64,000 nucleotides of DNA from Leifsonia sp. Leaf336 (GTDB lineage: Bacteria; Actinomycetota; Actinomycetes; Actinomycetales; Microbacteriaceae). The notes under the pieces were generated by a model. That model saw only the letters and a list, made by a program, of their open reading frames with translations, did not search any database and had not been told where the DNA came from. Below are positions 37,843 to 50,700 of the stretch, one piece after another. The stretch is taken from NCBI RefSeq assembly GCF_001423695.1, contig NZ_LMOZ01000002.1, positions 496,658-560,657 on the forward strand, given 5' to 3'. The position numbers were made by a program, and so were the translations under genes. Positions within the stretch are counted from its first letter, which is position 1; every line of letters begins with the position of its first letter.

Positions 37843-37870
37843 GAGGCCCGCCTTCGGCCGGGAGGGCCTC
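37843..37870 (-). terminator. Stem-loop at the end of lhgO, probable terminator
   Basis: GAGGCCC (37843-37849) pairs with GGGCCTC (37864-37870), with further pairing inside. The right arm overlaps the lhgO stop codon. It lies upstream of the LGFP gene on the same strand and probably separates the two transcripts. Confidence 0.5.
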
Positions 37871-39053
37871 AGGCGTCGAGCTCCGCGGCGATGTGCTTGG
37901 CGATCTCGAGCGAGCTCGTAGCCGCGGGAGAGGGGGCGTTGAGCACGTGAACCTGGCGCGGCGCGCGCTGGATGATGAAGTCGTCGGCCAGCGAGCCGTC
38001 ACGCAGGATGGCCTGGGCGCGGACACCGGAACCCGCCCGGACGATGTCGTTGGTCGAGACCTCCGGCACCAGGCGCGCGAGAGAAGACGCGAACAGCCGT
38101 CTCGAGAACGAGCGCATGATCTCCTTGGTGCCGGTGACCACGTTGCGGGACGCGAGTCGCAGGAAGCCGGGGTACACGATCGTCGAGGCGGTATCAGCGG
38201 CGTTGATGTCCGTCCAGCGGTAGCCTTCGCGGGCGAGGGCCATGACCGCGTTGGGGCCGGCGTGGACGCTGCCGTCGATCATGCGTGTGAGGTGCACGCC
38301 GAGGAAGGGGAGCTCCGGGTCGGGGACCGGATAGATCAGTCCCTTCACGAGGTCGCGGCGGTGCTCGACGAGTTCGTAGTACTCGCCGCGGAACGGCACG
38401 ATACGCGCTTCCGGCTCGAGCCCCGCCATGCGTGCGACGCGATCGCTCTGGAGTCCGGCGCAGTTGATCAGCCAGCCGCCCCGGACCTCGCCGTTCGTGT
38501 GCGTCACGACGACCTCGTCGGGCGTCGATGCGACCCCGACGACCTCGGTACCGAGTCGCAGATCGGCTCCGTGCTCCGTTGCGAGCTCGGCCAGGCGGCG
38601 GCTCACCGCCGCGTAGTCGATGATCCCTGTGGTCTCGACGCGGAGCGCGCCGACCGTGCTGACGTGGGGCTCGTACTCCCGTGCCTCTTCCGGGCCGAGC
38701 AGGCGGGAGGGGGCGCCATTGGCGGTCGCGCGCTCGAACAGCGTCTGCAGACGCGGAAGTTCTTTCTGATCGGTCGCGACGATGAGCTTGCCGCAGACCT
38801 CGTGCGGGATGCCGTGCTCCCGAGCGAACTCGACCATCGAACGATTGCCGGCGGTGCACATCGTGGCCTTGAGCGATCCGGGCTTGTAGTAAGGCCCCGC
38901 ATGGATGACACCGGAGTTGTGACCGGTCTGATGCGCGGCCCAGCTGGACTCCTTCTCGAGAAGGGTCACGTGCCGTCCCGACCGGGAGAGCCGCTCCGCA
39001 ACAGCCAGGCCGACGATGCCGCCGCCGATGATGATCACGTCCTGCTCAGCCAC
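37869..39053 (-). CDS. lhgO: L-2-hydroxyglutarate oxidase/dehydrogenase (LhgO-like FAD enzyme)
   Basis: A 394-residue FAD-dependent oxidoreductase. DVIIIGGGIVGLAVAERLSR is the dinucleotide-binding motif and QTGHNSGVIHAGPYYKPGSL the highly conserved active-site segment of LhgO, which oxidises L-2-hydroxyglutarate to 2-oxoglutarate and feeds electrons to the quinone pool. ELPFLGVHLTRMIDGSVHAG near the C-terminus is also family-specific. Start GTG 39053 follows AAGGGA. It is a metabolic gene with no obvious link to the glycan genes on both sides; another 2-hydroxyacid substrate or a role in recycling a side product is possible. Confidence 0.9.
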   Translation of the reverse strand: MAEQDVIIIGGGIVGLAVAERLSRSGRHVTLLEKESSWAAHQTGHNSGVIHAGPYYKPGSLKATMCTAGNRSMVEFAREHGIPHEVCGKLIVATDQKELPRLQTLFERATANGAPSRLLGPEEAREYEPHVSTVGALRVETTGIIDYAAVSRRLAELATEHGADLRLGTEVVGVASTPDEVVVTHTNGEVRGGWLINCAGLQSDRVARMAGLEPEARIVPFRGEYYELVEHRRDLVKGLIYPVPDPELPFLGVHLTRMIDGSVHAGPNAVMALAREGYRWTDINAADTASTIVYPGFLRLASRNVVTGTKEIMRSFSRRLFASSLARLVPEVSTNDIVRAGSGVRAQAILRDGSLADDFIIQRAPRQVHVLNAPSPAATSSLEIAKHIAAELDA

Positions 39054-39133: not shown

Positions 39134-39189
39134 AGTGGCCGTTGTGCGCTCACCCTCGCGCCGACGGATCAGGAAAGGTTCTCACCCCT

Positions 39190-40320
39190 TTGTCGAAGAC
39201 AATCGCACTCGGCCAACCCACTGTCGGGGACGAGGAGCTCGAGGCGATCGCGAAGGTGTTCGCCTCCAACTGGCTCTCCGGCGCAGGCCCGACCTGCGCC
39301 GCGTTCGAGGAGCGGTTCGCCGCCTCCGCCGGCGTCTCGCACGCGCTCGCCACCAATAACTGCGGCGCCGCTCTCCACCTCGGGCTCGAGGTTCTCGGTG
39401 CCGGCCCCGGCGACGAGGTCATCGTCGGCGACTACACGTTCCCCGCGACCGGCCACGCCGTCGCGTGGACGGGCGCCAAGCCCGTGTTCGTCGACATCCG
39501 CCCCGACATCTGGAGTGCCGACCCGGCCGCGGTCGAGGCGGCCATCACACCGAAGACGGTCGGCATCCTTGCGGTGGACGTCTTCGGACAGCCGGCCGAT
39601 TACGACGAGCTCCGTGCCATCGCCGACAAGCACGGTCTCTGGCTGATGGAGGACGCCGCCTGCTCCGCGGGGGCGAGCTACAAGGGGCGCCCGGCGGGCA
39701 GCCTCGCCGATGTCGCGACCTTCAGCTTCCACGGTCGAAAGGGCATCACGGCGGGCGAGGGTGGAGCCCTCACCACCGACCGCGCCGACCTGGCCGACCA
39801 CGCCCGAAAGCTGCACACGTACGGAATCGCGCCGGCGCTGACCCGCGAGAACAGCACCGATCTCCCGGTGCCCTCGTTCGACGAGCTCGGCTACAACTAC
39901 CGTCTCTCCGATGTCGCGGCGGGCATCATGCTCGCGCAGCTCGACCGGCTCGAGGGCCTGGTCGCCGCGCGCGGCCGCATCGCCGACCGGTACGCGGAGC
40001 GTCTCGCCGGCATCGAGGGTGTCACCGCGCCCGTCGCCCTCGACGACCGGGTGCACCCCTGGCAGTCGTACGTCGTGACGCTCGACGCCGATGTCGACCG
40101 CGGAGCGGTCGCCGCTCACCTCAAGGCGAACGGCGTGCAGTGCAACTTCGGTACCTACGCGTCGCACGTGCAGCCGATCTACGGCTTCGAGGGCACCCTG
40201 CCGGTCTCGGCCGACCTGTTCCGCCGTCACCTGGCGATCCCCATGCACGCCAACCTCAGCGTCGACGATGTCGATATCGTCACCGACACCCTGCGCGACG
40301 CCGTCGCCGCCGCGCGCTGA
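39190..40320 (+). CDS. DegT/DnrJ/EryC1/StrS-family sugar aminotransferase (first copy)
   Basis: A 376-residue PLP enzyme that typically aminates a nucleotide-linked keto-sugar. TIALGQPTVGDEELEAIAKV is the usual N-terminus, ATNNCGAALHLGLEVLG and VIVGDYTFPATGHAVAW line the cofactor pocket, EDAACSAGASYKGRPAG holds the Asp that binds the PLP ring, and FSFHGRKGITAGEGGAL the PLP lysine. TTG 39190 with AGGAAAGG upstream fits the conserved N-terminus best; an in-frame TTG at 39142 is less likely. It heads a plus-strand operon with an SDR, a hexapeptide acyltransferase and a GT4, so an amino (later acylated) sugar is the likely product. Confidence 0.88.
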   Translation: MSKTIALGQPTVGDEELEAIAKVFASNWLSGAGPTCAAFEERFAASAGVSHALATNNCGAALHLGLEVLGAGPGDEVIVGDYTFPATGHAVAWTGAKPVFVDIRPDIWSADPAAVEAAITPKTVGILAVDVFGQPADYDELRAIADKHGLWLMEDAACSAGASYKGRPAGSLADVATFSFHGRKGITAGEGGALTTDRADLADHARKLHTYGIAPALTRENSTDLPVPSFDELGYNYRLSDVAAGIMLAQLDRLEGLVAARGRIADRYAERLAGIEGVTAPVALDDRVHPWQSYVVTLDADVDRGAVAAHLKANGVQCNFGTYASHVQPIYGFEGTLPVSADLFRRHLAIPMHANLSVDDVDIVTDTLRDAVAAAR

Positions 40321-40354
40321 ATCAGCCGAACGAAAGAAAAGAGAGCGAACACTC

Positions 40355-41278
40355 GTGACCGAAACTGTCTTCATCACCGGAGGTGCCGGCTTCATCGGCC
40401 TGCACGTCGTCGACCAGCTTCTCGAGCAGGGCTACAACGTCCGAATCTTCGACAACATGTTCCGCGGCGATCGTGACGCCGTCAACAAGCTGGTCGCCGG
40501 TGGTCGAGTCGAGCTGATCGACCAGGACGTGCGCTACGGCGGAGCCGTGCACGCCGCGATGAAGGGTGCCGACTACGTCATCCACCTCGCCGCGGTCTCG
40601 ATCAACAAGAGCAACGCCGACCCGTACGAGTCGATGGACATCAACACCATCGGCGCGCACAACGTGTTCGCCGCAGCGGCCGACCACGGAGTCAAGCGTG
40701 TCGTCTTCGCATCGAGCGCTTCGGTGTACGGCGACCCCGAGAAGCTCCCGATGCACGAGGACGACAAGCTCAACCCGCTGACCCCGTACTGCATCTCCAA
40801 GCGCACCGGCGAGGACCTCCTGGGCTACTACGAGCGCCGCGCCGGTCTCTCCTGGATCGCTCTGCGCTTCTTCAACGTCTACGGGGAGGGCCAGAAGACC
40901 ACGGCCTACTACACATCGGTGATCAACCACTTCGTGAACCGCCTGAAGAACGGCGAGGCGCCGGTCATCGACGGCGAGGGCAAGCAGTCGATGGACTTCA
41001 TCCACGTGAAGGACATCGCCCGCGCCGTGGTGCTCGCGCTCACCTCGGAGCAGTCGAACATGGCGATCAACGTCGGCACGGGTATCGACACCACCGTCGC
41101 AGAACTCGCGCGCATCCTCATCGACGCCGTCGGCGTCGACGTCGAGCCGCAGTTCAACCCGCGCCCTGTCCTGGTCTCCCGTCGTGCGGCCGACACCACC
41201 CGCGCCACCGAGGTCCTCGGCTTCACGCCGTCGATCGAGGTGCACGACGGCATGACCCGGCTGATCCAGAACTCCTAG
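40355..41278 (+). CDS. NAD-dependent nucleotide-sugar epimerase/dehydratase (extended SDR)
   Basis: A 307-residue SDR. TVFITGGAGFIGLHVVDQLL is the NAD motif, VVFASSASVYGDPEKLP the catalytic Ser strand, and PYCISKRTGEDLLGYYERR the Y-x3-K. It resembles UDP-sugar 4-epimerases and related enzymes rather than RmlB (no Asp-Glu dehydratase pair in SSASVYG). Start is GTG 40355, 34 bases after the aminotransferase gene. It may prepare or rearrange the sugar handled by that enzyme; the exact substrate is unknown. Confidence 0.88.
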   Translation: MTETVFITGGAGFIGLHVVDQLLEQGYNVRIFDNMFRGDRDAVNKLVAGGRVELIDQDVRYGGAVHAAMKGADYVIHLAAVSINKSNADPYESMDINTIGAHNVFAAAADHGVKRVVFASSASVYGDPEKLPMHEDDKLNPLTPYCISKRTGEDLLGYYERRAGLSWIALRFFNVYGEGQKTTAYYTSVINHFVNRLKNGEAPVIDGEGKQSMDFIHVKDIARAVVLALTSEQSNMAINVGTGIDTTVAELARILIDAVGVDVEPQFNPRPVLVSRRAADTTRATEVLGFTPSIEVHDGMTRLIQNS

Positions 41279-41281
41279 CCT

Positions 41282-41734
41282 GTGACATCCTCGGGACTGC
41301 CGGAGAACCCCTACAACCCGCACGCGTGGATCGTCGGGGAGCCCGTCGTCGGTGAAGGCACCTGGATCGGTGCCTTCACCGTCATCGACGGCTCCGGTGG
41401 TCTCACGATCGGTGCCGGCTGCGACATCGCGTCCGGCGTGCACATCTACACGCATTCCAGTGCGTTGCGCTGCGTCTCAGGGCGGCAGTATCCGACCGTG
41501 GACCGCGCGCCCGTCACCATCGGCGACCGCGTGTTCATCGGCGCGAACGCCGTCGTCAACATGGGCGTGACCATCGGCGACGGCGCCATCGTCGGAGCGG
41601 GCGCCGTCGTCAACGCCGACGTGCCGCCCTTCACCGTCGTCGGCGGCGTGCCGGCGCGGGTGCTGGGAACAGTCGATCTGTCGGAGCCGACCACACCGAA
41701 GGTCATCTCCGCAGGCAGGGAGGAGAGCCGATGA
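41282..41734 (+). CDS. Hexapeptide-repeat acyltransferase (WbbJ/Xat-like left-handed beta-helix)
   Basis: A 150-residue trimeric-type acyltransferase. The hexapeptide turns run through GEGTWIGAFTVIDGSGGLTI, GAGCDIASGVHIYTHSSALR (with the catalytic His candidate in IYTHSS), VTIGDRVFIGANAVVNMGVT and GDGAIVGAGAVVNADVPPFT. VVGGVPARVLG is the typical end. Start is GTG 41282, three bases after the SDR stop, and the stop overlaps the GT4 start (ATGA). N-acylation of the amino sugar made by the aminotransferase upstream is the likely role; O-acetylation is the alternative. Confidence 0.87.
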   Translation: MTSSGLPENPYNPHAWIVGEPVVGEGTWIGAFTVIDGSGGLTIGAGCDIASGVHIYTHSSALRCVSGRQYPTVDRAPVTIGDRVFIGANAVVNMGVTIGDGAIVGAGAVVNADVPPFTVVGGVPARVLGTVDLSEPTTPKVISAGREESR

Positions 41735-42957
41735 AGATCGTCGTCGTCAACAACTTCTTCCCGCCGAGGCCGGGAGGCAGCTCCCACCTCGCGGATCATC
41801 TGGCGAAGAAGTACGCGGCAGGTGGTCACGAGGTGCTCGTCCTCACCGCCGGGTACAAATCCGCGCCGCCCTACGAGGAGCGAGACGGCCTGAAGATCGT
41901 TCGCATCCCCGCGTGGACGCTGCCGCAGACCCGATTGGCGGCCAACTTCGACATCGCGTTCACGATGTCTCCGCGCGCGAAACGCGAGGTTTTCGCGCTG
42001 CTGGACGAGTTCGGTCCGGACGTGATCCACCAGCACGGGCAGTTCTTCGACCTGACGTGGATGACGGGGTGGTGGGCGCGCAAACGCAAGGTGCCGACGC
42101 TCCTGAGCATCCACACTCGGCTGTACAGTCCCAATGCGGTCAACAATCTCATCTACCGTGTCGCCGATGCGGTGCTGGTGAAGCCGCTCATGCGGCTCCA
42201 CCATCCCCGTCTGGTAGTGATGGACGTGCTGATGGACCGCTACATCGACCAGCGATACCGTCGCGCGTTCCATGGCAAGGCGTACATCCCGGTCGGGATC
42301 GACCCGGAGGTGCTGCGCGGCGGAGATGCGCAGCGAGCCCGTGTGGAGCACGATCTGGGCGACAACCACGTACTCCTGTCGCTGGGGCATGTCATCCCGC
42401 AGCGCAGTCGTGTCGCCCTGGTCAAAGCGCTTCCCGCCGTGCTGGAGCGCTATCCGAACCTGATCGTCGTCGTGATCGGAGGCGTCTACCACGACGAGTT
42501 CCTGAAGCTCGCGCGCACGCTGGGCGTCGACCACGCGATCCGCGCGATCGGCGCGCGTCCGCAGAAGGAGATCCCCGACTACCTCGCAGCCGCCGATCTC
42601 GAGGTCCACGAGCTCGATGGTCAAGGCTTCGGTACCGCGAGCCTCGAGAGCCTCGCGGTCGGCATCCCTGTGGTCGCGGCGATCCGCCCGAACAACTTCA
42701 TCGAAGTCGTGCTGGAGGACGAGAAACACCTGTACCTTTCCGGCTTCGTCTCCGAGACGGACGAACGTGCCGACCCGGAGAGCCTGGCCGCGAAGCTGAT
42801 CGAGGTGCTGAGCGACCCGTCCGCGGCGCGCGAACGCGTGTCGGCGAACGCGCGAGCGGTCGTCGAGGAGCATTTCACCATCGACAAGGTCGCGGAGAAG
42901 CACCTCGTCACGCTGAGGGAGCTCGTCGCCGGCCGGGGGACCGTCGCCGCTCGCTGA
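41731..42957 (+). CDS. Glycosyltransferase family 4 (GT-B fold)
   Basis: A 408-residue transferase. MKIVVVNNFFPPRPGGSSHL opens with the glycine-rich acceptor loop, VIHQHGQFFDLTWMTGWWAR lies in the N-terminal domain, and YIPVGIDPEVLRGG marks the domain junction. ELDGQGFGTASLESLAVGIP is the donor-binding E-x-E-like motif. It is the last gene of the aminotransferase-SDR-acyltransferase operon and therefore a good candidate to transfer that sugar. A strong stem-loop follows its stop. Confidence 0.9.
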   Translation: MKIVVVNNFFPPRPGGSSHLADHLAKKYAAGGHEVLVLTAGYKSAPPYEERDGLKIVRIPAWTLPQTRLAANFDIAFTMSPRAKREVFALLDEFGPDVIHQHGQFFDLTWMTGWWARKRKVPTLLSIHTRLYSPNAVNNLIYRVADAVLVKPLMRLHHPRLVVMDVLMDRYIDQRYRRAFHGKAYIPVGIDPEVLRGGDAQRARVEHDLGDNHVLLSLGHVIPQRSRVALVKALPAVLERYPNLIVVVIGGVYHDEFLKLARTLGVDHAIRAIGARPQKEIPDYLAAADLEVHELDGQGFGTASLESLAVGIPVVAAIRPNNFIEVVLEDEKHLYLSGFVSETDERADPESLAAKLIEVLSDPSAARERVSANARAVVEEHFTIDKVAEKHLVTLRELVAGRGTVAAR

Positions 42958-43022: not shown

Positions 43023-43979
43023 TCAGGACCGGCTGGTCGCCTTGAGCTGCTCCACGACGCGGTGCGAGGGGACGATCGAGCGCCGCTCCGCATCCGCATC
43101 CACTGTGCCGTCGATGAGTCCCGTGAAGTGCGCGAGCTGCGCGGCCAGCGGTTCCACCGAGGTCACGAGCTCCGGGATCTCGATGACAGTCTGCTGCCGG
43201 TAGCCTCGGCCGTCATCGTCGGCAGCCTGGTCGGAGACGTGACGATAGACCGTGACATCACGGCGGAGCAGGTCCACCTCGATGAGACGGTCGAGGTCGT
43301 GGATGCTGAGCGTGCGGATCTTGCGCTGGCCGATCCGGCTCGCGGACACGTGGGCGATGCCGCCGTCCTCGAACCCGAGCACCGCCTCCGCCACGTCCTC
43401 GGCGCCGGGCACGGAGTCCGGGTGGAACTGCTCCACCGCCCCGCTCACGCGCACCGGCTCGCCCAGGAGACGGATCGACAGATCCACGTCGTGGACCAAG
43501 AGGTCCCAGGCGACACCGGTGCGGATGCGGGGAACGTAGGGGGAGTGTCGGACCGCCGTGGCGAAGATGGGCTCCCGGACGAGCTTCTGGGCCGTCAGGA
43601 CGGCCGGATTGAAGCGCTCGAGCAGCCCGCACATCATCGGAACGCCGAGCGTCTGCGACAACTCGATGATCTCGAGCGTGCTGTCCAGCCCGTCGGCGAC
43701 CGGTTTCTCGACGAGGAGGGGGACGCCGGCCTCCAGGACCTGCCGGGCCAGCTGGGGGTGCGCCTCGGTGGCGGCGGCGACGACCACGCCGTCGATGCCG
43801 GAGAGGTCGCCGATCTCGGGGCGCCACTGGGCCCCGAACCGCTCTGCGACGTCCCGTCCGACGTGCTCGCGCGGATCGACGAGGGCGGCGAGTTCAGCGC
43901 TTCCGGACGCGGAGATGACGCGGGCGTGGAGGGAGCCCATGGATCCTGCTCCGACCAGGAGGATGCGGGGACCGGTCAT
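43023..43979 (-). CDS. Gfo/Idh/MocA-family NAD(P)-dependent sugar oxidoreductase
   Basis: A 318-residue oxidoreductase. RILLVGAGSMGSLHARVISA is the Rossmann motif and LLVEKPVADGLDSTLEI the EKP motif with the catalytic Lys. The C-terminal domain begins RHSPYVPRIRTGVAWDLLVHDVD in outline, with the conserved Asp-x3-His-like segment. Start ATG 43979 overlaps the stop of the second DegT gene by one base, so the pair is one transcript. In other bacteria such a pair (3-dehydrogenase plus 3-aminotransferase, as WlbA/WlbC) makes 3-amino sugars; the same pathway here is inference. Confidence 0.87.
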   Translation of the reverse strand: MTGPRILLVGAGSMGSLHARVISASGSAELAALVDPREHVGRDVAERFGAQWRPEIGDLSGIDGVVVAAATEAHPQLARQVLEAGVPLLVEKPVADGLDSTLEIIELSQTLGVPMMCGLLERFNPAVLTAQKLVREPIFATAVRHSPYVPRIRTGVAWDLLVHDVDLSIRLLGEPVRVSGAVEQFHPDSVPGAEDVAEAVLGFEDGGIAHVSASRIGQRKIRTLSIHDLDRLIEVDLLRRDVTVYRHVSDQAADDDGRGYRQQTVIEIPELVTSVEPLAAQLAHFTGLIDGTVDADAERRSIVPSHRVVEQLKATSRS

Positions 43980-45076
43980 CAGGCGACCGCCTTCCGGATC
44001 GAGTCGACGATCGTATCGAGGTCAGCAGGGCTGAGAGCCGGGTGAACCGGGATCGAGAGCACTTCGCTCACGATGGTCTCGGCGACCGGGAACTCTCCGG
44101 TGATCACATCCTCGCGCTCGCGATAGCAGTCGTAGTCGAACACCAGCTTGGGGTAGTAGATGCCCGACCCGACGCCGGCCTCCGTGAGCTTCGCGGAGAG
44201 CTCGTCGCGGGTGATACCGCTGTCGGGAGTCACCCGCAGCGTGAACTGGTGCCAGACGTGGCGGCGACCGGGCAGCTGGGACGGCGCGACGATGCCGCGA
44301 ACGTCGGCCAGGCCGGCGCGCAAATGGTCGGCGTTCGCCTGCCGCGCCGCGACGACGCCGTCGTAGCGGTCGAGCTGAGGCAAGCCCAGCGCCGCCTGCA
44401 GGTCGGTCATGCGGTAGTTGTGACCGGCGACCTCGTACTGGTAGCGGGCGCGCATCCCCTGGTTGCGCAGCACCCGGAGACGGTCGGCGATCCGGTCGTC
44501 GTTGGTTGTGATGATCCCACCCTCGCCGGTGGTGATGTTCTTGGTGGCATAGAAGGAGAACGTGCCGATGCCGGTCGCGCCCGCGAAGCGGCCGTCCTGG
44601 TGGGAGCCGTGCGACTGGGCGGTGTCTTCGACGATCGCGAGTCCGCGGTCCGTAGCGAGCGTGGCGATCGCGGCCATGTCGGCGATCTGGCCGTAGAGGT
44701 GGACCGGCATGAGGACGCGGGTCCGCTCGCCGATGGCCGCGGCCAGGCTCGAGGCCGTGACGTTGAAATCGTCCTCGGAGATGTCGGCGAAGCGGGCGGT
44801 CGCACCAGCCTCGAGGATCGCGTTGAGCGTCGCCACGAACGTGAACGGGCTGGTGACGACTTCGTCACCCGGCTCCAGGTCGAGGACCTGGAGGGCAGCG
44901 ACGAGGGCCGTGGTTCCGTTGTTGACGGCGATCGCGTGCTTCACGCCGACCATCTCGGCGAAGCGATTCTCGAATTGCTGCACCTTCGCGCCCTGGGCCA
45001 CATTCCCGGAGCGGATCACTTCGAGGACCGAGTCCTCTTCCTCTTTTCCGAACTCCACGACTGTGATCGGTATCAT
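43979..45076 (-). CDS. DegT/DnrJ/EryC1/StrS-family sugar aminotransferase (second copy)
   Basis: A 365-residue PLP enzyme only distantly similar to the copy at 39190. GKEEEDSVLEVIRSGNVAQG is the N-terminal substrate loop, AIAVNNGTTALVAALQVL and VVTSPFTFVATLNAIL the cofactor pocket, IVEDTAQSHGSHQDGRFAG the PLP-ring Asp, and FSFYATKNITTGEGGII the PLP lysine. GSGIYYPKLVF near the C-terminus is the usual end of WlbC/FdtB-like members. It heads a two-gene operon with the Gfo/Idh/MocA oxidoreductase and is divergent from the LpxA-like acyltransferase gene. Confidence 0.9.
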   Translation of the reverse strand: MIPITVVEFGKEEEDSVLEVIRSGNVAQGAKVQQFENRFAEMVGVKHAIAVNNGTTALVAALQVLDLEPGDEVVTSPFTFVATLNAILEAGATARFADISEDDFNVTASSLAAAIGERTRVLMPVHLYGQIADMAAIATLATDRGLAIVEDTAQSHGSHQDGRFAGATGIGTFSFYATKNITTGEGGIITTNDDRIADRLRVLRNQGMRARYQYEVAGHNYRMTDLQAALGLPQLDRYDGVVAARQANADHLRAGLADVRGIVAPSQLPGRRHVWHQFTLRVTPDSGITRDELSAKLTEAGVGSGIYYPKLVFDYDCYREREDVITGEFPVAETIVSEVLSIPVHPALSPADLDTIVDSIRKAVA

Positions 45077-45157
45077 TGGGCGTACGTGTCCTGACTGTGT
45101 TGCGGTCGAGTGAGGTGTGCCGATCAGGCACCCAGTCGATCTTAGGTCACCATGCCG

Positions 45158-45163
45158 TAGACT
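45158..45163 (+). promoter_or_regulatory. Possible -10 element (TAGACT) of the LpxA-like gene operon
   Basis: Third occurrence of TAGACTC before a glycan gene (others at 25303 and 31179). Transcription would begin near 45170, leaving a leader of about 40 bases to ATG 45211. Confidence 0.4.
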
Positions 45164-45210
45164 CGCGCGGCCTGCGTCATCCCGCCCGCGAACCCCGGAA
45201 GATCCGAACC

Positions 45211-45903
45211 ATGAACTCCATTCACCCGACCGCTGTCATCGGCAGCGGTGTCCGTCTGGGCGCCGGAAACGTCGTCGGCCCGTACGCCGTGATCGGGGGC
45301 GATGTCGAGATCGGCGACGACAATTGGTTCGGCGCGGGGGTCAAGGTGGGCTGCCCGCCGGAGGTGCGTGGATTCCCGCACGACGCCGCGTGGATCGACA
45401 CGCCGACCGGCGCCGGGGTTAGCATCGGCGATGGCAATGTCTTCAGAGAAGAGGTGCAGGTGCATGGAGGTTGGCACGAGCGCACCCGTCTCGGCGACGG
45501 GCTCTTCGTCATGAACCGCGCCTACATCGCCCACGACGGACGTGTGGCAGACGGCGTGACGATCGCCTCGGGCGTCGCGATCGGCGGCCACGTCACGATC
45601 GGCAGGAATGCGAACATCGGCCTCAACGCGAGCGTTCACCAGCGCCGCGTCATCGGCGCCTTCGCGATGGTCGGAATGGGGTCGGTCGTCACCAAGGACG
45701 TGCCGCCCTTCGTCACGGCGTTCGGCAACCCGTGCGCGGCGCGCGGCGTCAATTCCGTCGGCCTCGAGCGCGCCGGTCTCGACGCGGCCGAGATCGACCG
45801 AATCGTCGAGTGGTTCGCCACCACCGGCGGCACGGATGTCACAGGACTGCCCGCGCCGTTCGACGGCGATCTCGCCGCGTTCGGGGAGGTGGTCGCCCGA
45901 TGA
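45211..45903 (+). CDS. LpxA-like acyltransferase (left-handed beta-helix)
   Basis: A 230-residue protein that resembles UDP-N-acetylglucosamine O-acyltransferase, the first enzyme of lipid A synthesis. It starts SIHPTAVIGSGVRLGAGNVV like LpxA, and the conserved histidines are present with LpxA spacing: His108 in YIAHDG, His127 in GGHVTIG and His143 in SVHQRRVIGA (gaps 19 and 16, as for 125/144/160 in E. coli LpxA). NPCAARGVNSVGLERAGL matches the C-terminal LpxA helix start. The C-terminal domain is shorter than in LpxA. No LpxC, LpxD or LpxB is nearby, so lipid A is not implied. A fatty-acyl or other acyl transfer to a nucleotide sugar is inferred. Confidence 0.85.
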   Translation: MNSIHPTAVIGSGVRLGAGNVVGPYAVIGGDVEIGDDNWFGAGVKVGCPPEVRGFPHDAAWIDTPTGAGVSIGDGNVFREEVQVHGGWHERTRLGDGLFVMNRAYIAHDGRVADGVTIASGVAIGGHVTIGRNANIGLNASVHQRRVIGAFAMVGMGSVVTKDVPPFVTAFGNPCAARGVNSVGLERAGLDAAEIDRIVEWFATTGGTDVTGLPAPFDGDLAAFGEVVAR

Positions 45904-46916
45904 ACCGGATCAAGGCCGCTCTTCCCAAGATCTTCCTGGTGCTGCGGTGGGTGCTCCTCGCCGCCGTCATCGGCTTCGCCGTCTACTATCTCGTCAGCCA
46001 GTGGTCCGCCGTCTCGTCGACGATCGCCCGCATCCCCGTGGCATCGCTGGTGCTCTCGCTCGCGTTGGTCATCCTCGGGCTCCTCGCAGGCACGATGAGC
46101 TGGGTGGCCGTTCTCAACGGCCTCGGGCATAAGGTCCCGGTCGCCCGAGGCGCACAGGTGATGCTCATCGGTCAGCTCGGCAAGTACGTCCCCGGTTCCG
46201 TGTGGTCGTATGTCCTGCAGATGGAGCTCGGCCGGCAGTACGGCATCCTGCGTCCGCGGGTGCTCGTGACCTCGCTCTACGCCGCCGGCATCGGAGTCGT
46301 CTCGTCGCTGGTGCTCGGAGCGTTCGCACTGCCCTTCGTCTCGGAGAACCACCCAGCGCTGCTCTGGCTCTTCCTCCTTCTGCCACTCGGCCTGATCTGC
46401 CTGCACCCGCGCGTGATGACCTGGCTGGCCTCCCTCGTCCTCAAGATCTTCCGCCGGCCGCCGCTCGACCACGAAGTCTCCTTCGCCACGGTGCTGAAGG
46501 CCGTCGCCTGGTCGCTTCTGGCGTACGTCTGCTACGGCCTGCACCTCTGGCTGCTGGTCAACGCGCTGGTCGACCCTGACTTCCTCACCCTCGTCCTCCT
46601 CACTGGGGCGATGGCGCTCGGATTCACTCTGAGTCTGTTCGCCTTCATCTTCCCGTCCGGTGTCGGCGTCCGTGAGGCCGTCCTCGTCGGCGCGATGGCG
46701 CTCCTGCTCACCATCCCGCAGGCGAGCGCCCTCAGCCTGGTCTCGCGGGCGATGTTCACCGCAGCGGACGTGTTGGCGGCCGGCGCGGCAGCGCTCGTCG
46801 CCGTGATCCTACGGCGGCGCATCGCTCAGGAGGCGGCCGCGAACCACTCCGACGACGACTACGACCACCTCCCGGAAGGCTCCACGCTTCTCGACGGAGT
46901 CAGCGAGACCAAATGA
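45900..46916 (+). CDS. Flippase-like membrane protein (LPG synthase TM-domain family)
   Basis: A 338-residue protein with eight or nine hydrophobic segments, of the lysylphosphatidylglycerol-synthase TM region/UPF0104 family. GQLGKYVPGSVWSYVLQMEL is the strongest family motif, and FAFIFPSGVGVREAVLVGAM another. No soluble aminoacyl-transferase domain is present, only the membrane part, which in other proteins flips lipids. The acidic tail (SDDDYDHLPEG) is cytoplasmic. Start ATG 45900 overlaps the LpxA-like stop; the stop overlaps the GT2 start. Moving a lipid-linked or acylated sugar intermediate is a plausible but unproven role. Confidence 0.82.
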   Translation: MNRIKAALPKIFLVLRWVLLAAVIGFAVYYLVSQWSAVSSTIARIPVASLVLSLALVILGLLAGTMSWVAVLNGLGHKVPVARGAQVMLIGQLGKYVPGSVWSYVLQMELGRQYGILRPRVLVTSLYAAGIGVVSSLVLGAFALPFVSENHPALLWLFLLLPLGLICLHPRVMTWLASLVLKIFRRPPLDHEVSFATVLKAVAWSLLAYVCYGLHLWLLVNALVDPDFLTLVLLTGAMALGFTLSLFAFIFPSGVGVREAVLVGAMALLLTIPQASALSLVSRAMFTAADVLAAGAAALVAVILRRRIAQEAAANHSDDDYDHLPEGSTLLDGVSETK

Positions 46917-47884
46917 CCCCTGGCGCGCAGACCGTCGGTGTCGCGCTGTGCACCTTCAACGGTGAGCCCTACGTCGCCGAACAGCTGCGCAGCATCGTCG
47001 CCCAGTCGTCGCCACCCGTCCTCATCGTCGTGGGCGACGACGGGTCGACGGATCGCACGATCGAGGTCGTCCGAGCGACGGTGGGCGACACTGTCCGCCT
47101 CAGCGTGCTCCCCGAGGGTGCGCGGCTCGGCGTCACCCGGAACTTCGAGCGGACCATCGTCGCGGTCGACGCGCCGCTGGTCGCACTGTCGGACCAGGAC
47201 GACGTCTGGCACCCGGGCCGTATCGCTCGGCTCGCCCCGTTGTTCGACGACAGCAGTCTGCTCCTCGTGCACACCGATGCGCGGCTGGTCGGGCCGGACG
47301 GTGCTCCGCTGGGGCGTTCGCTGTTCGATGACCTCGAAGTGTCACCGGACGAACTCGCGCTGGAGCGCTCCGGGCGCGCCTTCGAGGCATTCCTGCGCCG
47401 CAACCTCGCGACCGGCGCGACGATGGTCTTCCGGCGCTCGCTGCTGGAATCGGCCCTGCCGTTCCCGGAGGGGTGGGTGCACGACGAGTGGCTCGCCGTC
47501 ATCGCGGCCGCACTAGGCGGAGTCGCGGTCGTGGCCGACCAGACCATCGACTACCGGCAGCACGGGGCCAACCAGATCGGTGTCACCGCCCCGACGCTGA
47601 GCTACAAGATCGGGCGGGTGTTCGAACGACGAGGGGAGCGCAACCGGATCTTGGCCCGGCGGTTCGCCATCCTCGCCGATCGGCTCGACACCCTCCCCGT
47701 CGCCGAATCGGTGCGCCGGGCGGCGCGAGCGAAAGCGGAGTTCGAGGCTCGCCGTGCCGCGATGCCGTCCGGCCGCCTTCGTCGCGCGCTCCCCGTGCTC
47801 CGGCTGGCCGCGACGAAGGCCTACGGACGGTACGCAAGCCGGGGTGTCGCCGATATCGGACGGGATCTGCTCCAGCCGGCGTGA
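46913..47884 (+). CDS. Glycosyltransferase family 2
   Basis: A 323-residue GT-A transferase. VGVALCTFNGEPYVAEQLRS and VVGDDGSTDRTIEVVRAT are the nucleotide-binding strands, VALSDQDDVWHPGRI the DxD site, and FPEGWVHDEWLAVIAAALGG the acceptor-side loop with His-Asp-Glu. It resembles RfbF/RfbG-like rhamnosyltransferases of O-antigen loci. Third gene of the LpxA-like/flippase-like/GT2 operon (ATGA overlap). The C-terminal 80 residues are basic and helical, probably membrane-associated. Confidence 0.87.
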   Translation: MTPGAQTVGVALCTFNGEPYVAEQLRSIVAQSSPPVLIVVGDDGSTDRTIEVVRATVGDTVRLSVLPEGARLGVTRNFERTIVAVDAPLVALSDQDDVWHPGRIARLAPLFDDSSLLLVHTDARLVGPDGAPLGRSLFDDLEVSPDELALERSGRAFEAFLRRNLATGATMVFRRSLLESALPFPEGWVHDEWLAVIAAALGGVAVVADQTIDYRQHGANQIGVTAPTLSYKIGRVFERRGERNRILARRFAILADRLDTLPVAESVRRAARAKAEFEARRAAMPSGRLRRALPVLRLAATKAYGRYASRGVADIGRDLLQPA

Positions 47885-48576: not shown

Positions 48577-48678
48577 CAATCGACGGGCGCCCCCGTGCTC
48601 CCCGAACTGGCTACACGGGAAGACCGGGAAGCGTCGAAGCGGGCTGTTACTGTGACCAGGGCTAGTCGGGAGGCAGCG

Positions 48679-50700
48679 ATGGGGAAGATCACCAACGGAC
48701 TCATGATCGTCGGCCTGGCGGCCGCGACCGTGCTGGGGATATCCGGTCTTCAGCCGGCTTCGGCGCAAGGAGTGACGGCCGTCACGTCCGTCGGGGAGGC
48801 GGCGCCGCCCGCGTTGCCGGACCTGGCCGGACATCCGCACAAGCGCACCTGCGCCGACCCGCGCTCCGGACGTGCGGCGTGCTTCGCAGAAGTGGTTCAG
48901 GGTGTCGCGTCGCCGTCCGTGGGTGCAGCTCCGGCAGGGTACGGCCCAGCGGACCTTCGTGCCGCATACGCCCTGACGGCGGCGACGACTGCCGGGGCCG
49001 GCGCCACCGTGGCGGTCATCGACGCTTTCGACCTGCCTTCCGCCGAGTCCGATCTGGCTACGTACCGATCGACCTTCGGGCTTCCCCCGTGCACCTCCGG
49101 CAACGGGTGCTTCCGCAAGCTGGACCAACGCGGAGGCACCTCCTACCCGGCCACGTCGCACGCGTGGGGGCCGGAGACGGCAATCGACCTGGAGATGGTC
49201 AGTGCGGCATGCCCGAACTGCCGCATCCTTCTCGTCGAGGCCGACAGCGATTTGCTGAGCAACCTCGGCGCCGCGGCCCAGACCGCTGTGCTCTTCGGTG
49301 CGAAGTACGTCAGCAATTCCTACGGTGCGATCGAGGCCGGCAACGACTTCAGCAGCTTCGACCATTACTACGACCACCCGGGAGTCGTCGTCACGGCCTC
49401 CAGTGGCGACGCAGGGTACGGCACCCAGTTCCCGGCTTCGTCGCAGTACGTCACCGCCGTGGGCGGAACGTCACTGGTGCGTGCGGGCAACGCGCGAGGA
49501 TGGAGCGAGTCGGCCTGGTCCGGCGCCGGCAGCGGCTGCAGCTCGTACAGCCCCATCCCGTCGTGGCAATCGGGCACGGGATGTCCGACGAAGTCCGTCT
49601 CGGATATCTCGGCCGTCGCGGACCCGTCGACCGGAGTGGCGGGCTTCGGTCCGACTCCCACTGCACCGTATTCTTCGGCGTGGCAGGTGTTCGGCGGTAC
49701 GAGCGTCTCGTCGCCGTTGATCGCAGGCATGTACGCGCTCGCTGGCGTGCCGGCCGACGGAACCTATCCGGCGTCGTACCCGTGGGCGAAGCCATCGGCC
49801 CTCAACGACGTCACGTCGGGGACGAACGGAGCCGGATGCTCGCCGGCGCAGGCCTGTTCCGCTGGTCCCGGATACGACGGGCCGACGGGTCTCGGCACCC
49901 CTAACGGGGTGGCCGCGCTCGCAGCCCCGACACCCGGAGCGGCTCGTGAAGTCACAGGCGACTTCAACAGCGACCACACGAGCGATCTGCTGGCGCGGAA
50001 CGCGTCGGGTGCGCTGATCCTGTATCGCGGTGACGGCGCCGGGGGGTGGCTCTCGCCGCAGTCGGCTGTGGTCGGTTCGGGGTGGAACGGCATGACGGCG
50101 ATCGTCTCGGCGGGCGACTTCGACGGCGACGGGCGCAACGACCTGCTCGCGCGGGACTCCGGCGGATTCCTCTGGCTCTACCCGGGCGACGGCGCCAGCG
50201 GCTGGTTCACGCCCAGGAAGGTCGGCTCCGGGTGGAACATCATGACCTCCATCATCGCCGCCCGCGATTTCAACGGCGACGGCACCGCCGACATCGCCGC
50301 CATCGACTCGTCGGGGGTGTTCTGGCTCTATCCTGGCGACGGCCACGGCGGCTGGCTCGCACCCCGCGCGATCGGCTCCGGCTGGAACGGCATGACGGCG
50401 GTGGGTATCGACGACTTCGACGGCGACGGAAGCCCCGACATCCTGGCGCGCGACTCGATCGGTCGTCTGTGGCTGTACGGACACACCTCCGCGGGGTGGA
50501 AGACGCCTGTCGTCGTCGGAACCGGCTGGAACGGACTCACGATCGTGTCCGAGGGCGACTTCAACGGCGACGGGCACGCCGACCTCCTCGGCCGCTGGGC
50601 GAATGGCGCGCTCGTGCTCTACGCGGGAAACGGGCACTCGGGATGGCTGTCCCAGCGTCAGATCGGCTCGGGGTGGAACATCATGTCGTGGATGGGCTGA
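48679..50700 (+). CDS. Secreted sedolisin-type (S53) peptidase with five FG-GAP/VCBS-like repeats
   Basis: A 673-residue exported protein. Signal peptide KITNGLMIVGLAAATVLGIS, cleavage near ASAQ. Residues about 85-420 are a sedolisin domain: Glu166 and Asp170 (GPETAID, the E-x3-D pair), Asp244 (SSGDAGYG, oxyanion) and Ser342 (FGGTSVSSP, nucleophile). Sedolisins usually carry a long activation prodomain; only about 60 residues precede the catalytic part here. Residues about 425-673 are five repeats of some 48 residues with DF(N/D)GDG-x3-D calcium-like loops and G(S/T)GWN motifs, forming a beta-propeller-like module. GGGAGG before ATG 48679 supports the start. It may act on the cell surface; no substrate can be named. 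Confidence 0.87.
   Translation: MGKITNGLMIVGLAAATVLGISGLQPASAQGVTAVTSVGEAAPPALPDLAGHPHKRTCADPRSGRAACFAEVVQGVASPSVGAAPAGYGPADLRAAYALTAATTAGAGATVAVIDAFDLPSAESDLATYRSTFGLPPCTSGNGCFRKLDQRGGTSYPATSHAWGPETAIDLEMVSAACPNCRILLVEADSDLLSNLGAAAQTAVLFGAKYVSNSYGAIEAGNDFSSFDHYYDHPGVVVTASSGDAGYGTQFPASSQYVTAVGGTSLVRAGNARGWSESAWSGAGSGCSSYSPIPSWQSGTGCPTKSVSDISAVADPSTGVAGFGPTPTAPYSSAWQVFGGTSVSSPLIAGMYALAGVPADGTYPASYPWAKPSALNDVTSGTNGAGCSPAQACSAGPGYDGPTGLGTPNGVAALAAPTPGAAREVTGDFNSDHTSDLLARNASGALILYRGDGAGGWLSPQSAVVGSGWNGMTAIVSAGDFDGDGRNDLLARDSGGFLWLYPGDGASGWFTPRKVGSGWNIMTSIIAARDFNGDGTADIAAIDSSGVFWLYPGDGHGGWLAPRAIGSGWNGMTAVGIDDFDGDGSPDILARDSIGRLWLYGHTSAGWKTPVVVGTGWNGLTIVSEGDFNGDGHADLLGRWANGALVLYAGNGHSGWLSQRQIGSGWNIMSWMG

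What the first reader, a model, noticed from the sequence alone, without database searches (positions are those of the whole stretch)
45211..46916. LpxA-like acyltransferase and a flippase-like protein in an apparent monoderm
The protein has three histidines with the exact spacing of the E. coli LpxA active-site histidines (19 and 16 residues), but no LpxC/D/B is near. It is coupled to a membrane protein of the LPG-synthase TM family and a GT2. An acylated nucleotide sugar, moved across the membrane and built into a glycolipid or glycan, would be an unusual pathway.
Basis: partly seen in the sequence, partly recalled or inferred. Interest (0 to 1): 0.58.

Follow-up and report, generated by a model that had tools for sequence, protein, structure and literature searches.

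The report
LpxA-like acyltransferase in amino-sugar locus
An apparently Gram-positive bacterium carries a cousin of the enzyme that starts endotoxin synthesis, but it most probably just caps an unusual amino sugar with a small acyl group for a surface polysaccharide rather than building a lipid-A-like molecule.

Summary
The genes are real and correctly placed. 45211-45903 encodes a 230-residue LpxA-like acyltransferase with the three active-site histidines. The own genome has no LpxC, LpxB or Omp85 and no LpxD over cut-off. But the histidine spacing is not diagnostic: a solved sugar N-acetyltransferase, Pcryo_0615 (8e62), has it too. In a tree, P0001 and relatives (43 rows, 8e62 included) form a 100/98 clade apart from 15 LpxAs. 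At a position expected to line the acyl channel, LpxAs keep Gly155 (15 of 15); all 69 actinobacterial rows carry Met/Leu/Ile/Val, arguing for a short pocket.

The stronger partners are not the flippase-like protein or the GT2 but a divergent GnnA/GnnB-like pair (43023-45076), present in 53 of 69 related loci. GnnA-like genes occur in only 3 of 296 class genomes, all with the LpxA-like gene. Best reading: UDP-GlcNAc becomes UDP-GlcNAc3N, then is 3-N-acetylated for a surface glycan. Acetyl is inferred, not shown. In 30 of 69 loci an ACP/LuxE/LuxC cassette lies nearby, so a short ACP-borne acyl remains possible there; it is absent from this window.

The parts
45211..45903 (+). LpxA-like acyltransferase P0001 (230 aa); His108/Asp109, His127, His143; Leu138 and Met156 at E. 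coli positions 155 and 173
43979..45076 (-). GnnB-like DegT/DnrJ/EryC1 sugar aminotransferase P0004 (365 aa), divergent from P0001
   Evidence: PF01041 399 bits; divergent and within 450 bases of the LpxA-like gene in 48 of 69 loci
43023..43979 (-). GnnA-like Gfo/Idh/MocA nucleotide-sugar 3-dehydrogenase P0003 (318 aa)
   Evidence: PF01408; best NCBIfam model NF040723 UDP-GlcNAc 3-dehydrogenase, 126.5 bits, below its cut-off of 450; best solved match 7bvj
45077..45210 (.). 134-base divergent intergenic stretch between the GnnB-like and LpxA-like genes
   Evidence: promoters were not tested
45900..46916 (+). PF03706 (LPG_synthase_TM) membrane protein P0002 (338 aa)
   Evidence: no sequence match among solved structures; family in 99 of 296 genomes
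46913..47884 (+). GT2 glycosyltransferase
   Evidence: PF00535 62.5 bits; in 4 of 69 related loci
39142..40320 (+). second DegT-type sugar aminotransferase (DegT2) of the wider conserved locus
   Evidence: 33 of 69 loci
40370..41278 (+). NAD-dependent sugar epimerase/dehydratase, as translated here; the true start is probably a few codons upstream (inferred)
   Evidence: 33 of 69 loci
41282..41734 (+). short hexapeptide-repeat acetyltransferase (HexAT)
   Evidence: 38 of 69 loci
41731..42957 (+). GT4 glycosyltransferase
   Evidence: 38 of 69 loci

Best explanation
P0001 is the 3-N-acyltransferase, most probably an acetyl-CoA-dependent N-acetyltransferase, of a UDP-2,3-diamino-sugar pathway. 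The GnnA-like dehydrogenase oxidises C3 of UDP-GlcNAc, the GnnB-like PLP enzyme transaminates it to UDP-GlcNAc3N, and P0001 transfers a short acyl group (acetyl most likely) to the new 3-amino group, using His108-Asp109 as base and the Gly126 backbone as oxyanion hole. The product, UDP-2,3-diacetamido-2,3-dideoxyglucose or a derivative, is then used by the cluster's glycosyltransferases for a cell-surface glycan. Shown here: gene content, conservation, linkage, clade membership, residue differences, predicted fold. Inferred: substrate, donor, chain length, product, use. The membrane protein and GT2 are taken to belong to the wider glycan cluster; their roles are unknown.
For: Tree of 63 rows: P0001 with 42 others, including the N-acetyltransferase 8e62, forms a 100/98 clade apart from all 15 LpxA rows and 5 LpxD rows. 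8e62's title names it an N-acetyltransferase required to produce a diacetamido-2,3-dideoxy sugar; it has the highest identity to the model among the 50 rows shown (35%; Z 26.7 over 181 of its 183 residues). Columns in E. coli numbering: 155 is Gly in 15 of 15 LpxA and Met/Leu/Ile/Val in 69 of 69 actinobacterial rows (8e62 Met); 173 is Met in 69 of 69 (8e62 Met; LpxA 3 of 15); 152 is Asn in 65 of 69 (8e62 Asn; not Asn in any of the 15 LpxA). Position 173 lines the acyl channel and its enlargement shifts E. coli LpxA towards a C10 donor (PMC6286764, passage). Position 155 sits 18 residues earlier, so by coil periodicity on the same face one coil nearer the active site (inference). GnnA+GnnB-like genes are in 53 of 69 loci (23 of 23 Amycolatopsis and 30 of 46 others, split counted by hand), with GnnB divergent within 450 bases in 48. 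GnnA-like: 3 of 296 genomes, all among the five with full-length P0001 matches (chance 2.3e-6, or 1.4e-4 without the window's genome). Gnn chemistry as in PMC5644692 (passages).
Against: No biochemical evidence for any actinobacterial member. P0003 is well under the cut-off of its best model (126.5 of 450 bits), so UDP-GlcNAc as its substrate is not certain. 16 of 69 loci miss the pair at my thresholds; in Nocardioides the LpxA-like gene sits beside DegT2 and a less similar GnnB. Overall length and Z are nearer LpxA (Z 30.1 over 220) than 8e62, and P0001 keeps a His at E. coli position 99, which 8e62 lacks. An ACP cassette near 30 of 69 relatives hints at another donor. The placement of 8e62 rests on a partial sequence of odd composition, beside a long branch.
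Confidence: 0.68

Rival explanations
1. Short ACP-borne acyl transfer: members of this family, at least those beside the ACP-FabG-AMP ligase-LuxE-LuxC cassette, put a short non-acetyl group such as 3-hydroxybutyryl on the 3-amino group, taken from the dedicated ACP.
For: All five cassette genes are present together in 30 of 69 loci and absent together in 39. In Amycolatopsis they follow the LpxA-like gene on the same strand. Pfam calls are LuxE, LuxC, AMP-binding and short-chain dehydrogenase; PP-binding just misses its cut-off, 20.3 against 20.8 bits. LpxA itself uses acyl-ACP.
Against: The cassette is not in the window and LuxE is not found in the own genome at 1e-40. It exists without the LpxA-like gene: in G131 (G131 is not among the 7 hits) and in Aeromonas flagellin islands (PMC7874193, passages, where no LpxA-like gene is named). 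In Micromonospora L053 it lies beside HexAT rather than the LpxA-like gene.
Confidence: 0.14
2. LpxA-like long-chain acylation: a fatty acyl (C10 or longer) amino sugar nucleotide that becomes a glycolipid.
For: LpxA fold at Z 30.1; His125/144/160 equivalents in 69, 68 and 69 of 69 rows; Leptospira LpxA, which acylates UDP-GlcNAc3N (recalled), also matches (Z 28.2).
Against: Clade apart from LpxA; 69 of 69 rows bulky at position 155 and Met at 173; Gln73 and His122, named for 3-hydroxyacyl recognition in PMC6286764 (passage), are His and Tyr in P0001 by this alignment; no LpxB or LpxC.
Confidence: 0.06
3. Other acceptor: P0001 acylates an amino sugar made by DegT2 and the epimerase/dehydratase (for example a 4-amino sugar), and HexAT serves the GnnA/GnnB product.
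For: DegT2 is directly upstream of the LpxA-like gene in the four Nocardioides loci L070, L071, L074 and L075, and Yinghuangia loci L032 and L037 have DegT2 and the epimerase but no GnnA/GnnB at the thresholds used.
Against: GnnA/GnnB go with the LpxA-like gene in 53 of 69 loci, DegT2 in 33; divergent adjacency of GnnB in 48 of 69.
Confidence: 0.12

Closest known systems
Pcryo_0615 (PDB 8e62), N-acetyltransferase for a 2,3-diacetamido-2,3-dideoxy sugar in Psychrobacter
   Same: Same clade in the tree; 35% identity over 181 residues; same histidine pattern; Met/Leu at 155, Met at 173, Arg at 162, Asn at 152, Gly at 142, Tyr at 122.
   Different: Gram-negative O-antigen pathway; 189 aa, lacks the first coils and the His at position 99. 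Its paper (doi 10.1002/pro.4502) was not held; only a title was seen in a reference list, and linking 8e62 to that paper is recalled.
LpxA of lipid A synthesis (E. coli; Leptospira interrogans 3hsq)
   Same: Left-handed beta-helix, histidine triad, Asn198 and Arg204 equivalents.
   Different: Gly155, Ala142, Gln73 and His122 not kept; outside the LpxA rows in the tree; below both LpxA model cut-offs; no LpxB or LpxC in the genome.
GnnA/GnnB pathway to UDP-GlcNAc3N
   Same: Dehydrogenase plus aminotransferase beside an LpxA-family acyltransferase; chemistry as described in PMC5644692 (passages). The adjacency to lpxA in Acidithiobacillus is recalled.
   Different: Here no lipid A genes are present to use the product; P0003 is distant from 7bvj (76.5 bits; that 7bvj is a GnnA is recalled).
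WbpB/WbpE/WbpD pathway and the Streptomyces teichuronic-acid utr locus
   Same: 2,3-diacetamido sugars in a monoderm actinobacterial wall polymer, made by a dehydrogenase, aminotransferase and N-acetyltransferase (PMC13274773, passages).
   Different: That route includes a UDP-sugar dehydrogenase (utrD); none was found in the window with two own UDP-sugar dehydrogenases as queries. The utr N-acetyltransferase was not compared with P0001.

Membership tests
LpxA (UDP-GlcNAc 3-O-acyltransferase of lipid A) | Score over the curated equivalog cut-off | tested here: not met
   162.2 of 226 (NF003657) and 145.1 of 231.05 bits (TIGR01852)
LpxA (UDP-GlcNAc 3-O-acyltransferase of lipid A) | Catalytic His/Asp and second-shell histidines | tested here: met
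   His108, Asp109, His127, His143; also present in an N-acetyltransferase, so not specific
LpxA (UDP-GlcNAc 3-O-acyltransferase of lipid A) | Acyl-channel and acceptor residues Gly155, Ala142, Asn137, His122, Gln73 | tested here: not met
   Leu, Gly, Ser, Tyr, His in P0001; LpxA rows keep them in 15, 15, 14, 15 and 14 of 15
LpxA (UDP-GlcNAc 3-O-acyltransferase of lipid A) | Falls among LpxA in a tree | tested here: not met
   43-row clade at 100/98 without any of 15 LpxA rows; the clade may have arisen from within LpxA, as the deeper LpxA branches are weakly resolved
LpxA (UDP-GlcNAc 3-O-acyltransferase of lipid A) | Partner enzymes LpxB and LpxC in the genome | tested here: not met
   with control genomes ringing
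LpxA (UDP-GlcNAc 3-O-acyltransferase of lipid A) | Full C-terminal helical domain (PF13720) | tested here: inconclusive
   Only profile positions 1-40 of 82 matched, though helices are predicted to residue 229
LpxA (UDP-GlcNAc 3-O-acyltransferase of lipid A) | Transfer of a 3-hydroxyacyl chain from ACP | not testable with these tools
   needs an enzyme assay
LpxA-like sugar 3-N-acetyltransferase (Pcryo_0615 type) | Clade with the characterised member | tested here: met
   8e62 lies inside the 43-row clade
LpxA-like sugar 3-N-acetyltransferase (Pcryo_0615 type) | Sugar 3-dehydrogenase and aminotransferase encoded alongside | tested here: met
   P0003 and P0004 by family; 53 of 69 loci
LpxA-like sugar 3-N-acetyltransferase (Pcryo_0615 type) | Acetyl-CoA as donor, 3-amino sugar as acceptor | not testable with these tools
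   needs an enzyme assay
GnnA (UDP-GlcNAc 3-dehydrogenase) | Score over a curated model | tested here: inconclusive
   NF040723 is the best model, 126.5 of 450 bits; by its name the model is archaeal
WbpB/WbpE/WbpD uronic-acid pathway | UDP-sugar 6-dehydrogenase in the cluster | tested here: inconclusive
   None in the window and in 1 of 69 actinobacterial loci (L021) with two usable queries; three such genes over the cut-off lie elsewhere in the genome
PF03706 flippase-like proteins | Pfam family match | tested here: met
   51.3 bits, cut-off 33.4
PF03706 flippase-like proteins | Lipid or lipid-linked sugar flipping | not testable with these tools
   no solved relative by sequence

The most novel reading that the evidence does not exclude
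Probability: 0.14. Interest if true: 0.62.

Novelty: new member of a known kind. Interest (0 to 1): 0.36.

Why it matters
By their name and score such proteins can be taken for the first enzyme of lipid A synthesis, which would wrongly suggest endotoxin chemistry in Gram-positive bacteria. The columns found here (155, 152, 142, 173 in E. coli numbering) help to tell the two groups apart. The conserved GnnA/GnnB/LpxA-like locus, in 15 named actinobacterial genera plus unnamed MAGs and the window, predicts a 2,3-diamino sugar in surface polymers; a polymer with such sugars was recently shown to be a receptor on Streptomyces (PMC13274773, passages).

Tried and rejected
Rejected: the histidine spacing as proof of LpxA function, because 8e62 has it. 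Rejected: a tight trio with the membrane protein and GT2. Rejected as proof: the ACP cassette, because it travels without the LpxA-like gene.

Led nowhere or was weak: a sequence search for solved relatives of P0002; the 8e62 paper is not held; literature searches on LpxA with Gram-positive or actinobacterial terms and on diacetamido sugars in their walls listed no paper that names this trio, in an open-licence library only and judged from the listings; searching 7BVJ found nothing useful. Channel geometry was argued from coil periodicity only, since model coordinates could not be read. The second model (a canonical LpxA, L091) was collected but not used further.

Errors put right: five LpxA rows (L095, L096, L102, L105, L107) were read on the wrong strand; one search repeats the table correctly and only it is used. 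In one search the longest-frame rule misread at least one UDP-sugar dehydrogenase query; one search repeats the test, where L147 and L148 look right and L146 is still wrong. The row group called GNlike also holds L012, which is of the window's own class. Rows dropped: L013 and L014 (partial hits) from the tables; six loci whose hit was an LpxA row already present (L086, L089, L091-L094); 35 of 69 actinobacterial rows were used in the tree. The 80 loci are the best 80 of 122, and 23 of 69 actinobacterial rows are Amycolatopsis. That the 296-genome draws are the same set is judged from shared handles.

Full report
What is there. The window is an actinobacterial surface-polysaccharide region, about 64-73% G+C. 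At 45211-45903 (+) lies a 230-residue left-handed beta-helix protein (P0001), followed with a 4-base overlap by a PF03706 membrane protein (P0002) and then a GT2. On the opposite strand, 134 bases away, start a DegT-type aminotransferase (P0004, 43979-45076) and a Gfo/Idh/MocA dehydrogenase (P0003, 43023-43979). Further left is a DegT2-epimerase-HexAT-GT4 module, 39142-42957.

Is it LpxA? P0001 scores well on LpxA models but under both curated cut-offs. Its predicted structure (pLDDT 93) matches E. coli LpxA with Z 30.1 over 220 residues, and the N-acetyltransferase 8e62 with Z 26.7 over 181 of 183 residues. The histidines 108, 127 and 143 are real, but the same spacing occurs in 8e62; it follows from the coil periodicity of the fold (inference). 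A 63-row tree puts P0001 and 42 other rows, 8e62 among them, in one clade (100/98) without any of 15 LpxA or 5 LpxD rows. Several genomes carry both an LpxA over the cut-off and a member of this second clade, for example G303 (L099 and L109) and G306 (L105 and L110), so the two are paralogues with separate duties (inference).

What chain can it take? With the corrected alignment (69 actinobacterial rows, 15 LpxA rows), position 155 is Gly in 15 of 15 LpxA but Met 46, Leu 20, Ile 2, Val 1 in the actinobacterial rows; position 173 is Met in 69 of 69; position 152 is Asn in 65 of 69. 8e62 has Met, Met and Asn. Against using 173 as a rule, 3 of 15 LpxA rows also have Met there. In E. coli LpxA, residue 173 lines the acyl channel and larger residues there favour a C10 donor (PMC6286764, passage). 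Residue 155 is one 18-residue coil earlier, so a bulky residue there should cut the channel nearer the catalytic centre (inference, not measured on coordinates). This favours acetyl or another short group.

What goes with it? One scan of genome contigs gave 122 relatives, the best 80 kept. Of 69 actinobacterial loci including the window, GnnA-like genes occur in 57, GnnB-like in 53, both in 53, the PF03706 protein in 44, HexAT and GT4 in 38 each, DegT2 and the epimerase in 33 each, this GT2 in 4. GnnB is divergent and within 450 bases in 48; the membrane protein is directly downstream in 13. In a draw of 296 class genomes, P0001 at E <= 1e-15 matched 7, two of them by short partial hits; P0003 at E <= 1e-30 matched 3, all among the other five, a chance of 2.3e-6, or 1.4e-4 leaving the window's own genome out. 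P0002 at E <= 1e-20 matched 99 of 296. So the specific partners are the dehydrogenase and aminotransferase. The 16 loci without the pair are L023, L026, L032, L033, L037, L050, L057, L058, L060, L068, L070, L071, L074, L075, L081 and L082; some are short contigs and some hold weaker matches under my thresholds.

How it probably works. GnnA/GnnB chemistry turns UDP-GlcNAc into UDP-GlcNAc3N (PMC5644692, passages). P0001 would then acylate the 3-amino group. Whether the sugar is also oxidised at C6 is open: three UDP-sugar dehydrogenase genes over the cut-off exist elsewhere in the genome, none was found in the window, and 1 of 69 loci has one nearby with the two usable queries. 2,3-diacetamido sugars are known in monoderm walls: the S. 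griseus teichuronic acid-like polymer holds ManNAc3NAcA (PMC13274773, passages).

The ACP cassette. In 30 of 69 loci (23 Amycolatopsis and 7 others, counted by hand) an ACP-like protein, a short-chain reductase, an AMP-dependent ligase, LuxE and LuxC all occur; in the other 39 none does. This could mean an ACP-borne donor. But the same five functions occur together in Aeromonas flagellin islands (PMC7874193, passages) and in genome G131 without the LpxA-like gene in the 12.8-kb stretch read; the cassette is not in this window, and LuxE is not in the own genome at 1e-40. It keeps the novel case alive but does not carry it.

Is the host a monoderm? A 2010 survey found none of the lipid A genes in its seven Gram-positive genomes (PMC3087551, passage).

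Verdict. A real, conserved and misleadingly LpxA-like sugar N-acyltransferase in a 2,3-diamino-sugar locus; most probably an N-acetyltransferase. New member of a known kind, with a modest chance of an unusual short acyl donor in some relatives.

Noticed in passing
L038:10841-16391, also L055, L046, L053: An ACP, FabG-like reductase, AMP ligase, LuxE and LuxC cassette lies near the LpxA-like gene in 30 of 69 loci, all five together or none.
   Followed up: partly
window 39142-42957: The DegT2-epimerase-HexAT-GT4 module is itself conserved in many of the same loci; it probably makes a second rare amino sugar (function inferred).
   Followed up: partly
L032, L037: Yinghuangia loci keep the LpxA-like gene, DegT2 module and ACP cassette but show no GnnA/GnnB at the thresholds used.
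   Followed up: no
L090:6609-9726: A Chloroflexi contig encodes a dehydrogenase, an LpxA-like protein and an aminotransferase in a row, so the trio reaches beyond Actinobacteria.
   Followed up: no
L061, L085: In the tree P0001's smallest starred set holds two Bdellovibrionota rows rather than actinobacteria (100/98), hinting at transfer between phyla.
   Followed up: no
window 37869-39053: An L-2-hydroxyglutarate oxidase (552 bits, cut-off 299) stands inside the polysaccharide region; its ORF cluster recurs in 13 of the loci clustered.
   Followed up: no
window 48595-50700: A long protein that looks, from its sequence only, like a secreted sedolisin-type protease with C-terminal FG-GAP/VCBS-like repeats (recalled motifs).
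   Followed up: no
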